NCBI RefSeq assembly: GCF_028416635.1
Contig: NZ_CP114013.1
Span: 930,001-994,000 of the forward strand
Origin: Baekduia alba
GTDB taxonomy: Bacteria; Actinomycetota; Thermoleophilia; Solirubrobacterales; Solirubrobacteraceae
Length of the DNA stretch: 64,000 nucleotides
Direction: 5' to 3'
The translations under genes and the position numbers were made by a program. Positions 24,263 to 28,849 of this stretch are shown in pieces. Every line of letters begins with the position of its first letter. Positions within the stretch are counted from its first letter, which is position 1. Below the pieces are notes generated by a model. That model was not told where the DNA came from. It searched no databases and was given only the letters and a program-made list of their open reading frames with translations.

Positions 24263-24844
24263 TCCCGCGTCCTTCCTTTGGTGGTGACCCGCCCGGGCAG
24301 GATACGGCGCCTCGCGCACGCGCGCGCGAGAAGCACTGCGCGCTGGAAGGCGACCACCGGCGCGCGAGGGGGTTCGCCGAATACGGGGCGGCAAGAACTT
24401 GCGCGGCCGAGGTGCTCGTCGTGGCCGCGGGAGATCCTCGTCCCAGAGCCAAAAGTCGACCACATCGGGTGTTCGTTGAATGCGCGGCGGACCGCCAGCG
24501 CTCGCTTTTCGTGCCCACGGGCGGCCATCCCGCTGATAGCCTGACGCTCCTCTTCACCTTTCTTCTTCTTCTCGTTCAGCACCCGCAGTTCGCACCACCT
24601 TCAGCACGCAGTACCCGGCTCTCCCGCAGCGCCTCGCGTTGCTCGCAGCCACCGCCTGCTGAACCGCTCACGGACCAGGCACGTGCGCTTCGCACCCTGA
24701 TCCTGCTCCGCCCCTAGGGATCGACGCTTCCACGTCGGTCCCGTTCCGGCGTTCTCTGCCGGGCACCTCGCACGACCCGTCCCGCGCACCACTCCACGGG
24801 ACACCCGGAGGACCAGCTCCTCCCCCGCTCGTTGCACGGCTGCC
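24263..24844. other. Gene-poor stretch, no coding feature supported
   Basis: About 580 bases with lower GC locally (a CT-rich run ccttTcttcttcttctcg near 24560) and only short frames with poor composition on both strands. The sequence tgatagcctgac near 24535 could be a weak -10 element for the downstream operon. I see no RNA gene, repeat or protein fragment here. Confidence 0.5.
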
Positions 24845-24918
24845 GATGCTCACCACGAGCATCACCAGGTTCGACTCCTGGACTGAGCGCGACCTCGACC
24901 CCAACCCCGGGGCCGAGG
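24845..24918 (+). promoter_or_regulatory. Structured 5' leader of the PLP-enzyme operon (candidate riboregulator)
   Basis: Three stem-loops follow each other directly before the gene: 24845-24863 (7-bp stem GATGCTC/GAGCATC, 5-base loop), 24865-24881 (CCAGG-TTCGACT-CCTGG, a tRNA T-arm look-alike) and 24893-24918 (outer CCTCG/CGAGG, inner CCCC/GGGG). The ribosome site (agaaggg, 24927-24933) follows. The adjacent first two hairpins resemble the variable plus T arms of a long-armed tRNA, but no anticodon arm or acceptor mate is visible upstream, so it is not called a tRNA. A regulatory leader or a tRNA-derived scar are both possible. Confidence 0.4.
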
Positions 24919-24942
24919 CGACTCACAGAAGGGCGCATCAAC

Positions 24943-26475
24943 ATGCGCAAGTTCGACCTGTCCTCCCCGGAGGGCATGAACCCCCTGGCCTCCCCGGAGG
25001 CCCAGATGGAGACGCCGTACCGGACCGCGCTCGACGTGGCGGCCGACTGGTACGACGTCCGCGGCCAGGCGCCGGCGTCCGGCGGGACCTTCCCCGTGGC
25101 GGTCGAGTCCGCCGTGGGGGGCGAGTCGTACGCCCACCGCGACATGAGCGTCGTCCGCGGGCTCGGCGTCGCACTGCCGGGCAAGAAGTCCGCGCTGGTG
25201 CGGAGCGAGGAGCTGCTCGCCGGCGCGATGCCCGGCGCGAAGTTGGCCACGTACCTCACCACCGGCGCCAGCGGCGCAGCGGAGGCGACCACCAGCGCGC
25301 TCATCGACACCGCGCTGGAGCAGGTGAAGCCGGGCGAGAAGCCCTGCTTCCTCGTCACCAGGAACGTCCACATCTCCGTCGCCAACCGCCTGAAGGCGCG
25401 CGGCGTGCGGGTCGAGTGGATCGCCGTCCCGATGCACCCGCTCGGGATGGCGGACGTGGTGGACGCATCCGCCCTCGAGGCCAAGCTCCGCACGGGCAAC
25501 TACCACGGCGTCATCGTCAGCTCGCCCACCTACGAGGGCAAGCAGGCGGACGCCAAGAAGTGCATCGACGCCGCGCACGCGCACGGGGTCCCGATCATGT
25601 GGGACATGTCGTGGGCGACCGAGATGGCGTTCACGGACCTGATGGGAGACAGCCCGCTCAAGCTCGGCGCCGACGCCGTGGTGTTGAGCCTCCACAAGAG
25701 CCTGTTCTTCCCGGGTCAAATGGCCGCGGGGGCGCTCGGTTACAACAGCCTGATCCCGGAACGGGTGTGGCGGGCCGCGATGCTGGCCGACAAGTCCACC
25801 TCGCAGTCGAGCAACTGGCTCGCGGCGGCGGACGAGGCCCGGAAGGACGCGTTCCTCAACGCGACCGCTCACCTCGAGCGCCTCTGGGCGGCGATCGAGC
25901 GCTCCCGTCGCTACCTCCCCCAGGACATGCTCGTCGACTGGGACGAGGAGAAGCGCGCCGGACGGACGCACAGCGCGGACCACATGCCGCACCGTCTGAC
26001 CTTCCGGACGCACCACCTCGGTTACACCGGGTACGAGCTGGCGGCCCTCATGGACGAGCGTCGCGTGCAGACGGCGCAGGCGCACCGCGCGTTCTTTTTC
26101 GACGGATTCGGCGCCGGAGGCGCCGAGGCGATCCCGGAGCTGTTCAAGCGGCTGGGGGCCGTGGTCGACGAGCTGCCGCGCAAGCGGCCGTTCGAGCTCG
26201 ACCAGATCCCCCGGATCCAGCTCCGGGACGCCACGGTCGACTACAGCCAGGCGGTCGGCCCGGTCGACGTCGTGCCGGTGCGCGACGCGGTCGACCGGGA
26301 GCTCGCCCAGTTCGTCGGCGCTTACCCGCCCGGGATCGCGATCGCGGGGCCGACGGAGCTGCTCAGTCACGAGAACGCCGGGTTCCTCCTGACCACCAAG
26401 GACGGGGGCGGATCGCTGTGGGGTGGCGACCTGGTGACGACGGGCTCGGGTGAGCTCATGGTCTACAGGCGGTGA
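24943..26475 (+). CDS. Orn/Lys/Arg-decarboxylase-like PLP enzyme (fold type I)
   Basis: A 510-residue fold-type I PLP enzyme starting at ATG 24943. TYLTTGASGAAEATTSALID corresponds to the cofactor-phosphate loop, FLVTRNVHISVANRLKARG carries the His stacking on the ring, PIMWDMSWATEMAF the Asp that pairs with the pyridine nitrogen, and VVLSLHKSLFFPGQMA the Schiff-base Lys after His. That order is the Orn/Lys/Arg decarboxylase major-domain pattern, but the sequence is divergent and lacks the N-terminal wing domain, so decarboxylase, aminotransferase or other activity cannot be fixed. A transporter gene follows, suggesting an amine or amino-acid exchange or export module. Confidence 0.7.
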   Translation: MRKFDLSSPEGMNPLASPEAQMETPYRTALDVAADWYDVRGQAPASGGTFPVAVESAVGGESYAHRDMSVVRGLGVALPGKKSALVRSEELLAGAMPGAKLATYLTTGASGAAEATTSALIDTALEQVKPGEKPCFLVTRNVHISVANRLKARGVRVEWIAVPMHPLGMADVVDASALEAKLRTGNYHGVIVSSPTYEGKQADAKKCIDAAHAHGVPIMWDMSWATEMAFTDLMGDSPLKLGADAVVLSLHKSLFFPGQMAAGALGYNSLIPERVWRAAMLADKSTSQSSNWLAAADEARKDAFLNATAHLERLWAAIERSRRYLPQDMLVDWDEEKRAGRTHSADHMPHRLTFRTHHLGYTGYELAALMDERRVQTAQAHRAFFFDGFGAGGAEAIPELFKRLGAVVDELPRKRPFELDQIPRIQLRDATVDYSQAVGPVDVVPVRDAVDRELAQFVGAYPPGIAIAGPTELLSHENAGFLLTTKDGGGSLWGGDLVTTGSGELMVYRR

Positions 26476-26672
26476 CCCACACCCAGCCGTCCGCCTGAAC
26501 CCAGGCTGACCCCCTGAGCGCCTCGTGCGCGAAGGGGTCCATGGCTGATCTCACCGCCGCGCGGGTGCCGACGACCCTGTCGGCCCCGCGCGGCTCCCAT
26601 GAAGGAATCGCAGGTTGGAACGGGTGGCCCGAACGGCCGCCCGTTCCGCCGTTCGCAGGAAGCAGGTCCTCC

Positions 26673-27932
26673 ATGTTCGTCTTCGCATGGCTGTTCGGCA
26701 CCGTTGCCGCAGCCATCGTCTTCCTCGCTCAGCTCCGCTCCTACCGCAAAAAAGCCCTGCCCATCGCGCTGCCGATCGCCATCTGGCTCGGCGTCGGCCA
26801 GATCGCCATCCTGTTCGGCAACCTCATGGTGTCCTTCGGGGCGCCGGACATCGCCGACGAGTTCGGCCTCCCCGCGTGGCTGGTCGTGGTCATCAACCAC
26901 GCCGGCAACTTCGGCGGGTTCGTCGGCTGCCTCGTCGCCGCCCTCTGGATCGGGCTCCCCCGGCGCATGCCGGTGATCCTCGGGTTGGCCGGGGTGTCCA
27001 TCGCCGTGTCGCCCTTCATGGGCGGGGCCTTCGTGCCGGCGGCGAGCCTCTCCCTGCTCGTCTTCGGCGCCCTCGCGGCGTGGGCCGTGTTCAACGTCCA
27101 CGTCCGCGTCCTCGCGGCGGTGCCGAAAGACCGGCGCGCCGAGACCATGGGCCTGATCCTGTCGCCGTGCCTCCTGGTCGGCGTGGCCCTCGTCGGCGTC
27201 CCGCTGCTGGGTGGCTGGCACCTCGGGCTCTGGACCATCGCCGTGGTGGTCGTGCTCCTCGCCGTGACCTACCCGCTGCTCAAGGGCGTCCCGAAGGCGA
27301 CGCGGCTGGAGCGGCACGGGTTCGACTCCATGCTCGGGCTCGCCAAGGAGCACCGGCGCTTGATCGTCGGGGTGTGCGCGAACTTCTCGGGGTGGGTCGC
27401 GCTTTACACGATCCCAAGCCTGGCCGGCGCCTCCTCCGACGGCATCGAGCTCATGGCCGTGGCCGGTCAGTTGGTCGCTGCCGGACTCGCGCCGCTGGTC
27501 GGCCGCCTGGCCGACCTGAACCCGCGCAAGGTCGGCTACGCGGCCGCGTGCGGGCTCGCCGTCGCGCTGGTCGGGACCGCCGTGGCCCCGACAGGGTCGC
27601 TGCCGCTGCTGGCGGTGCCGCTGCTCGGACTGAAGCTCGGGTGGTGGCTGTGCGCGCTGTTCTTCGCCGTCGGTGAGGCCTGCGGCAACTTCAACCAGGG
27701 CCTCATGGAGGCCGCGGTGTCGCGCGTCAACAGCGACTCGGTGCGCGTGCAGCTCATCGCTCTGGCCCCGCGCTTCGCGGTCGTCGCCCTGCTCAACATC
27801 ACGCTGGCCATCGTGTCGGCGGTGGTCGGCGGAGCCATGGTCGGCATGATCATTGGCGGCGTCTGCACCGCGGTCGTGCTGGGCGGTCTCGTGCCGGCGC
27901 TGCGCAAGATGCCGGCGGTGGGCACCGCCTGA
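26673..27932 (+). CDS. MFS-like membrane transporter
   Basis: Starting at ATG 26673 (MFVFAWLFGTVAAAIVFLAQ; ribosome site aggaag upstream) gives 419 residues with about twelve hydrophobic segments in two halves split by a basic loop (KGVPKATRLERHGFD). Charged loops such as WIGLPRRMP and DLNPRKVGY lie where MFS motif A repeats are found. An ATG at 26541 in the same frame would add 44 soluble residues without hydrophobicity, so I prefer the later start. Substrate unknown; its place after the PLP enzyme suggests transport of that enzyme's substrate or product. A good intrinsic terminator follows. Confidence 0.75.
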   Translation: MFVFAWLFGTVAAAIVFLAQLRSYRKKALPIALPIAIWLGVGQIAILFGNLMVSFGAPDIADEFGLPAWLVVVINHAGNFGGFVGCLVAALWIGLPRRMPVILGLAGVSIAVSPFMGGAFVPAASLSLLVFGALAAWAVFNVHVRVLAAVPKDRRAETMGLILSPCLLVGVALVGVPLLGGWHLGLWTIAVVVVLLAVTYPLLKGVPKATRLERHGFDSMLGLAKEHRRLIVGVCANFSGWVALYTIPSLAGASSDGIELMAVAGQLVAAGLAPLVGRLADLNPRKVGYAAACGLAVALVGTAVAPTGSLPLLAVPLLGLKLGWWLCALFFAVGEACGNFNQGLMEAAVSRVNSDSVRVQLIALAPRFAVVALLNITLAIVSAVVGGAMVGMIIGGVCTAVVLGGLVPALRKMPAVGTA

Positions 27933-27937
27933 GCACC

Positions 27938-27982
27938 GAGGGAGGTCCGCGCCATCCGGCCCGGGCCTCCCTCCCCTTTTTT
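27938..27982 (+). terminator. Intrinsic terminator after the MFS gene
   Basis: An 8-bp stem (GAGGGAGG, 27938-27945, with CCTCCCTC, 27966-27973) is followed by CCC and six T residues (27977-27982), six bases after the stop. This is one of the few T-run terminators in the window. Confidence 0.8.
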
Positions 27983-28022
27983 GCCCTCCAGCCTGAGTAG
28001 TGAAGAGAGAAGGGAACGGGAC

Positions 28023-28685
28023 ATGGTTGTTCCAAAGGAGTACGGCGGGATCGACGCCCGGCTGGTCGAGGTGACGCGCCGCATGAGGCCGTTCGCGCCG
28101 ATGAGCCTGGCGCCGTTCGGGTCGCCGGAGTTCGCCGTCGCGCTGCTCGGCGCGGTCGCCGAGCTCGGGGCGTCGACGGAGCGCCCCGAGACCGGCGCGG
28201 AGGTGATCGTGTCGAAGTGGGTGAGGCTGGTCGAGGGCGAGTCGGCGGAGAACGTCCGCTGCCGGATCGGAGGTCAGGGTGGCCGGTGCGCCGTCACCGT
28301 GGACGAGCGCCTCGGAGTCCTGGTCGCACTGGGCGAGACCCCGCGGGTCGTGGGCGTCATGGTGCTCGCGCCGCGGAGCGACGACACGCTCCAGCCGCTG
28401 TCGATCACCTGCCGTCTCGACGACGACGGCGGTGCCACGTACGAGTGGCGGTTCGGTCGCGACGGTCGGGTCTACGTCGTGCAGGCGCGGCGCGACGGGG
28501 AGCACTGGGTGGCCACGCTCGAACGGGTGCTGAGCCCGATCGAGGTCGGCGTCGTCGACCCCCACCTCGCGCGGGAGACCGGCGCGACGCCGGCTGAGGC
28601 GTTCGACCGAGTCGTCCCGGCGATGCCGCAGCCCCAGCACGCGGCCGCAGGAGTGCTCCCGCGACACGGCCTCGGGACCGACTGA
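28023..28685 (+). CDS. Hypothetical protein, 220 residues
   Basis: ATG at 28023 behind a purine-rich ribosome site (gagaaggga). The protein begins MVVPKEYGGIDARLVEVTRR and contains a beta-rich middle (VSKWVRLVEGESAENVRCRI, then GGRCAVTVDERLGVLVAL) with two Cys, ending in an unstructured Pro/Gln tail. It has no signal peptide or membrane segment. I do not recognise a family. It sits between two intrinsic terminators, so it is a single-gene transcription unit, and it is adjacent to the PLP enzyme/transporter pair. Confidence 0.65.
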   Translation: MVVPKEYGGIDARLVEVTRRMRPFAPMSLAPFGSPEFAVALLGAVAELGASTERPETGAEVIVSKWVRLVEGESAENVRCRIGGQGGRCAVTVDERLGVLVALGETPRVVGVMVLAPRSDDTLQPLSITCRLDDDGGATYEWRFGRDGRVYVVQARRDGEHWVATLERVLSPIEVGVVDPHLARETGATPAEAFDRVVPAMPQPQHAAAGVLPRHGLGTD

Positions 28686-28699
28686 GCCAGCCCACCCGC

Positions 28700-28759
28700 G
28701 CAAGCGGCGCCCGCACCAGCGGGCGCCGCTTGCCGCGGTGCTCAGCCGCCCCTTTTTTT
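28700..28759 (+). terminator. Long hairpin with downstream T-run
   Basis: A perfect 14-bp stem (GCAAGCGGCGCCCG, 28700-28713, with its complement 28720-28733) and a 6-base loop, followed 20 bases later by seven T residues (28753-28759). The stem is very strong; the T-run is displaced, so it may be a terminator or an end-protecting 3' structure. Confidence 0.65.
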
Positions 28760-28767
28760 GCCATCAC

Positions 28768-28785
28768 ATGAACGTTTACGTTCAT
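28768..28785. promoter_or_regulatory. Perfect palindrome upstream of the PucR gene
   Basis: ATGAACG-ttta-CGTTCAT, 7-bp arms with a 4-base spacer, 65 bases before the pucR-type start. It is AT-richer than its surroundings. A regulator-binding site is likely, possibly for the PucR protein itself. Confidence 0.6.
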
Positions 28786-28849
28786 CTATACCCGTTCCGT
28801 AGGTTCCGCGCGCTCCGCATGGTGCTACGGTCCCGGCCGGCGGCGGTAC

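What the first reader, a model, noticed from the sequence alone, without database searches (positions are those of the whole stretch)
24845..26475. Structured leader before a divergent PLP enzyme, with tRNA-like arms
Three stem-loops in 74 bases precede the gene, the first two resembling a long variable arm and T arm of a tRNA (loop TTCGACT). The leader could be a riboregulator responding to the enzyme's amino acid, or a tRNA-derived insertion scar at the edge of an acquired block (24.9-28.7 kb, which also has the window's two clearest T-run terminators).
Basis: partly seen in the sequence, partly recalled or inferred. Interest (0 to 1): 0.5.

Follow-up and report, generated by a model that had tools for sequence, protein, structure and literature searches.

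The report
Orphan folded leader, not tRNA-derived
The RNA stretch just before a lineage-specific decarboxylase-like gene folds much more stably than chance and may control how that gene is translated, but no relative of it could be found, so its function is untested, and the tRNA resemblance looks like coincidence.

Summary
The three stem-loops are real and correctly placed (24845-24863, 24865-24881, 24884-24925). The leader folds better than all 200 dinucleotide shuffles (z -4.9), and the core better than all 300 (z -6.1). It is one of three strongly folded spacers in one predicted operon: PLP enzyme, MFS transporter, unknown ORF. The PLP-MFS spacer folds even better (z -7.0); the third holds a strong intrinsic terminator. 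A plain count of perfect hairpins is not unusual for this GC.

The tRNA reading fails. There is no tRNA or Rfam match, and 17 of 18 bases match one tRNA-Ile T-arm without the acceptor strand. Eleven of 300 random segments match a tRNA as well. No att-like repeat or mobility gene was found.

The riboregulator reading stays open. Part of the Shine-Dalgarno and the start codon can pair, and the T-arm-like hairpin competes with the first codons. No homologous leader was found: the enzyme's best relatives are about 30-36% identical, and a one-sequence covariance model gave only chance-level hits in 232 genomes. The conservation test could not be run. Verdict: real structure, probable cis-regulatory leader, orphan, modest interest.

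The parts
24717..24823 (+). Upstream hairpins of the same C-rich stretch: 24717-24742 (10 bp with one U-G pair), 24746-24762, 24807-24823
   Evidence: 24717-24942 as a whole z -5.05, 0 of 100 shuffles as stable; whether they are in the transcript is unknown
24845..24863 (+). First stem-loop (P2), perfect 7-bp dyad with 5-base loop
24865..24881 (+). Second stem-loop (P3), 5 bp, T-loop-like loop TTCGACT
24884..24925 (+). Third stem-loop (P4), long imperfect stem
   Evidence: folds better on the opposite strand (-28.7 against -21.5 kcal/mol)
24927..24948 (+). Shine-Dalgarno-like GAAGGG and start-codon hairpin GCGCAT-CAAC-ATGCGC (24933-24948), alternative to pairing of GGGCGC with the leader's 5' end
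24943..26475 (+). Divergent PLP enzyme of the Orn/Lys/Arg decarboxylase superfamily, 510 aa
   Evidence: Pfam OKR_DC_1 E 3.8e-11; fold
26476..26672 (+). PLP-MFS spacer, very strongly folded (several hairpins, one multi-branched)
   Evidence: z -7.0, 0 of 100 shuffles as stable; structure; no Rfam match at gathering score. Partly coding if the MFS gene starts at 26541
26673..27932 (+). MFS-type transporter, weak family match
   Evidence: MFS_1 E 3.3e-5, under the curated cut-off; start chosen by the rough gene caller
27981..28685 (+). Unknown ORF (start 27981 or 28023)
   Evidence: no family match
28693..28759 (+). Strong intrinsic terminator with seven T, end of the predicted unit

Best explanation
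It is the structured 5' untranslated leader of a lineage-specific three-gene unit (OKR_DC-type PLP enzyme, MFS transporter, unknown ORF) in an actinobacterium of the family that holds Solirubrobacter. The most likely mode of action is in cis, on translation of the first gene. In one fold the three hairpins form and a short closing helix takes the end of the Shine-Dalgarno sequence. In the other, P3 opens and pairs with the first codons while the start codon enters its own hairpin. A ligand, protein or temperature could shift this balance. Shown: unusual fold stability, position, no match to known families, and competing folds in silico. Inferred: that the leader is transcribed, that the two states exist in the cell, and any signal. 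The T-loop-like hairpin is at most a common RNA building block, not a tRNA relic.
For: Stability far beyond shuffles. Position directly before a gene with a plausible Shine-Dalgarno. Shine-Dalgarno end paired with probability 0.93-0.99 in the short fold and start codon paired with probability 0.77-1.0 in the longer one. The three spacers of this unit have the lowest + strand z of 25 intergenic regions. The upstream stem 24717-24742 holds a U-G pair that favours RNA of the + strand.
Against: No homologous leader, hence no covariation. The closing helix depends on the chosen ends. A count of perfect hairpins is not unusual. P4 folds better on the - strand, and P2 and P3 are symmetric dyads that say nothing of strand. 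No promoter was recognised and the transcription start is unknown. Distant family members do not as a rule have structured leaders (25 scored, mean z -0.60).
Confidence: 0.42

Rival explanations
1. The stems are general mRNA architecture: they stabilise the transcript ends and cistron borders of this unit, with no specific signal and no switching.
For: The PLP-MFS spacer and the 3' end are as strongly folded as the leader, and the 3' element is an ordinary terminator.
Against: A leader that ties up part of the Shine-Dalgarno and the start codon would be costly without regulation; inference only.
Confidence: 0.27
2. The dyads act as double-stranded DNA: operator sites for one or more repressors near the promoter, the RNA fold being a by-product.
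For: P2 and P3 are perfect dyads with no G-U pair; z is as low on the - strand as on the + strand (-5.3 and -5.2). Patterns like P2 with up to 3 mismatches occur 12 times in the window against 5.2 expected, though the others are poor dyads.
Against: The only other perfect copies in fetched loci are in two weak covariance hits inside coding-like ORFs. The dyads lie 60-100 bases before the start codon without a recognisable promoter. The stretch holds several unrelated dyads.
Confidence: 0.18
3. Chance: a GC-rich, C-biased intergenic stretch that happens to fold well, picked from 64 kb.
For: Hairpins are common at this GC: 778 perfect ones in the window, and 12.8% of windows have as many stem pairs. 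No conservation could be shown.
Against: 0 of 200 and 0 of 300 shuffles as stable; rank 4 and 5 of 2130 windows; clustering of the three lowest + strand spacers in one unit.
Confidence: 0.1
4. A tRNA-derived insertion scar at the edge of an acquired block.
For: A 17-of-18 match to the tRNA-Ile(GAT) T-arm; close homologues of the PLP and MFS genes are absent from relatives.
Against: The identity ends one base after the T-stem, with no acceptor strand, and 11 of 300 random 56-mers score as high. No repeat pair joins the block's two ends, no integrase or transposase among the 29 proteins scanned, and GC is in line with the flanks.
Confidence: 0.03

Closest known systems
Translational T-box riboswitches of Actinobacteria (ileS type)
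   Same: A structured leader of an amino-acid-related gene in an actinobacterium that could control access to the Shine-Dalgarno sequence; translational T-boxes work by sequestering it (passages of PMC7583486)
   Different: No Rfam match even at E 5. The T-box is a receptor for tRNA and does not itself resemble a T-arm; its bulge UGGN (PMC7583486) occurs here only inside the P3 stem
tRNA T-arm of tRNA-Ile(GAT)
   Same: 17 of 18 bases of stem and loop
   Different: No acceptor, anticodon or D part; no tRNA found by ARAGORN or Rfam
Orphan riboswitch candidates from intergenic surveys (e.g. PMC6429828, PMC2864571)
   Same: A structured intergenic element before a metabolic gene without known ligand
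   Different: Those are ranked by several unique representatives and covariation (PMC6429828 passages; PMC2864571 seen as search listing only); here there is one representative and no covariation
SAR0482 (2x3l) and Rv2531c (9n0o), Orn/Lys/Arg decarboxylase family proteins
   Same: The PLP enzyme has their fold: Foldseek E 6e-18 and 8e-17
   Different: 15-17% identity; the near-invariant H227 of its relatives is E here, so substrate and reaction are unknown

Membership tests
tRNA / tRNA-derived sequence | Cloverleaf, or a recognisable 3' half including the acceptor strand | tested here: not met
Integrated mobile element | Integrase or transposase near by, or repeats flanking the block | tested here: not met
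   None among the 29 proteins scanned between 12.1 and 43.2 kb; no repeat pair joining both block ends
T-box riboswitch | Match to the Rfam T-box model | tested here: not met
   no match to any Rfam family up to E 5 in 24600-25000
Riboswitch / cis-regulatory RNA (in general) | Structure more stable than chance, upstream of a gene | tested here: met
Riboswitch / cis-regulatory RNA (in general) | Structure conserved with covariation in homologous leaders | tested here: inconclusive
   no homologous leaders found
Riboswitch / cis-regulatory RNA (in general) | Ligand binding and control of expression | not testable with these tools
   needs probing and reporter assays
Orn/Lys/Arg decarboxylase superfamily (enzyme) | Family profile and fold, PLP lysine kept | tested here: met
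   OKR_DC_1 42.8 bits against cut-off 27; fold; K252 and D221 invariant in 50 sequences (their roles are recalled from the family)
Orn/Lys/Arg decarboxylase superfamily (enzyme) | Decarboxylase activity | not testable with these tools
   near-invariant H227 replaced by E makes the substrate uncertain

The most novel reading that the evidence does not exclude
A new riboregulator with a single known representative so far. It would use a T-loop module and a P3-versus-coding-region switch to control translation of a divergent decarboxylase-like enzyme and its transporter, sensing the amino acid or amine they handle, with a second structured element in the PLP-MFS spacer.
Probability: 0.12. Interest if true: 0.6.

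Novelty: new member of a known kind. Interest (0 to 1): 0.25.

Why it matters
If the leader is regulatory, it would point to the substrate of a divergent branch of the OKR decarboxylase family and add a rare RNA element from a little-studied actinobacterial group. As it stands it is one orphan sequence. The useful outcomes are that the fold is real, that the tRNA-scar reading can be dropped, and that the PLP-MFS spacer deserves the same attention.

Tried and rejected
Rejected: a tRNA gene or fragment; a T-box or any other Rfam family; an insertion scar; a repeated element in the genome.

Led nowhere: close homologues of the enzyme by protein search in relatives, order, class and phylum, genome contigs, viral contigs, plasmids and phages; MFS homologues; synteny with G004 and G006, which in the stretches fetched share only the DUF1801 gene; leader DNA in the phage and plasmid collections (only pieces of about 29 to 46 bases at E 0.03 to 0.1); the first structure model, with 7 sequences, which was poor (pLDDT 58.9). 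Weak covariance hits: of the 14 loci fetched for them, 11 have the hit inside an ORF with coding-like composition, as expected by chance.

Literature (seen as search listings unless said). Passages were read of PMC7583486 (T-box review) and PMC6429828. In the held library, the search for the enzyme family name with 'riboswitch' gave 0 papers and 'Solirubrobacter' with 'riboswitch' gave 1, a Mycobacterium genome paper with one mention of each word.

Full report
What is there. The reported hairpins are in the sequence as described. They are a perfect 7-bp stem at 24845-24863, a 5-bp stem with loop TTCGACT at 24865-24881, and a long imperfect stem at 24884-24925. They stand before an ATG at 24943 with GAAGGG upstream, which opens a 510-codon gene ending at 26475. 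Folding 24840-24942 gives -44.7 kcal/mol against a shuffle mean of -29.4, z -4.94, with 0 of 200 shuffles as stable. The core 24845-24925 has z -6.11 with 0 of 300. In 2130 windows of 120 bases on both strands (mean z -0.30, sd 1.21) the leader ranks 4th and 5th, below the 28.7-kb terminator and a site inside the MFS gene. A cruder measure disagrees: counting perfect hairpins only, 12.8% of 103-base windows have as many stem pairs. The signal is thus in the combined stability relative to composition, not in an unusual number of hairpins.

Wider anatomy. The leader is part of a longer hairpin-rich stretch: 24717-24942 has z -5.05 with 0 of 100 shuffles as stable. With a rough gene map of the window, 25 intergenic regions of 70-900 bases were folded. 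On the + strand the three lowest z values belong to this unit: 26476-26672 (-6.4), 28686-28849 (-5.7) and 24263-24942 (-3.7). The second holds an ordinary strong intrinsic terminator with seven T. On the - strand the first two are also low (-4.95 and -3.85), but 24263-24942 as a whole is not (-1.0). The PLP-MFS spacer is more striking than the leader itself, though part of it would be coding if the MFS gene starts at 26541.

The genes. The first protein is a divergent member of the Orn/Lys/Arg decarboxylase superfamily (Pfam OKR_DC_1 E 3.8e-11). A model built with 49 relatives (pLDDT 82.2) matches SAR0482 (2x3l), Rv2531c and ornithine decarboxylases first, at 15-17% identity. In a 50-sequence alignment D221 and K252 are invariant, while the near-invariant H227 is E here, and G225 is A. 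The second gene is a weak MFS match and the third matches no family. Downstream lie a PucR-type regulator, an amidase and an amino-acid permease.

Which organism. The window's genome has 5.86 Mb in one contig.

Relatives. Matches to the enzyme at E 0.001 or better were found in 73 of 101 genomes (own included), but apart from the gene itself those listed are 26-36% identical. At stricter cut-offs only the own genome passed in the order (1 of 232 at 1e-40) and in the phylum sample (1 of 396 at 1e-36); in the class 3 of 399 passed at 1e-36, own included. In genome contigs, 249 of 280 pattern hits encode relatives; the 80 kept are 26-32% identical. The MFS protein had no match outside its own genome among 61 genomes at 1e-10 or 396 genomes at 1e-15, own included in both counts. 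The unit is therefore lineage-restricted in what was searched; acquisition is possible but not shown.

Homologous leaders. None was found. Leader DNA has no second copy in the genome (best other match 33 bases at E 0.05) and no match in the 6 other genomes of the genus. A covariance model built from this one sequence found only itself at a convincing score in 100 sources (next best E 0.03). In 232 genomes of the order the next best was E 0.003 for a single genome, which is what so many genomes would give by chance. Of the 14 loci fetched for such weak hits, 11 carry the hit inside a coding-like ORF; one of them (L188) even has a T-arm-like stretch similar to P3. Among 25 family members scored, leader z averaged -0.60 (sd 1.41); one (L086, -4.5) was lower than the window's -3.9 in the same test.

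tRNA question. ARAGORN and Rfam find no tRNA. The genome's tRNAs were located (46 Rfam matches), the loci fetched and compared (51 ARAGORN records, some repeated because loci overlap). The best is tRNA-Ile(GAT): 17 of 18 bases over the T-arm plus one base, with nothing of the acceptor strand. No long-variable-arm tRNA scored above 11, and 11 of 300 random 56-mers of the window reach the observed score of 16. The perfect T-arm pattern is the only one in the window (0.06 expected per strand), but it was noticed first and tested afterwards. No mobility gene appears in the 29 proteins scanned (27 of the 28 genes predicted in 12.1-43.2 kb, plus two other ORFs), no repeat joins the block's ends, and GC is in line with the flanks. 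The scar reading is rejected.

How it may work. In the short leader fold the end of the Shine-Dalgarno (24932-24933) is paired with probability 0.93-0.99 in a closing helix while the start codon is free. With 35 more bases P3 opens, its strand pairs with the first codons, and the start codon enters the hairpin 24933-24948 (probability 0.77-1.0). This is a plausible translational switch, but the closing helix depends on the chosen ends. The strand evidence is mixed: an upstream stem has a U-G pair favouring +, P4 folds better on -, and P2 and P3 are perfect dyads that would serve equally as DNA operators. My ranking is: cis-acting leader 0.42; plain mRNA architecture 0.27; operator dyads 0.18; chance 0.10; tRNA scar 0.03.

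Verdict. A real, unusually stable, orphan structured leader of a lineage-specific decarboxylase-like operon. It matches no RNA family tested. Its regulatory role is plausible and unproven; interest is modest unless relatives or probing data appear.

Noticed in passing
26476-26672: The spacer between the PLP and MFS genes folds even better than the leader (z -7.0, 0 of 100 shuffles as stable), with a 13-bp hairpin at about 26615-26646 and a multi-branched part; no Rfam family at gathering score.
   Followed up: partly
28768-28785: ATGAACGTTTACGTTCAT, a near-perfect 18-base palindrome before the PucR-type regulator gene, a possible operator; the only copy in the window with up to 3 mismatches.
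   Followed up: partly
24943-26475: In the PLP enzyme the histidine H227 that is nearly invariant in 49 relatives is glutamate and G225 is alanine, while D221 and K252 are kept: a changed substrate or reaction is possible.
   Followed up: partly
24480-24830: Strongly C-rich, G-poor intergenic stretch on the + strand (GC skew down to -0.26) between divergent genes.
   Followed up: no
27001-27120: Second most negative fold z of the window scan (-6.9 on +), inside the MFS coding sequence.
   Followed up: no
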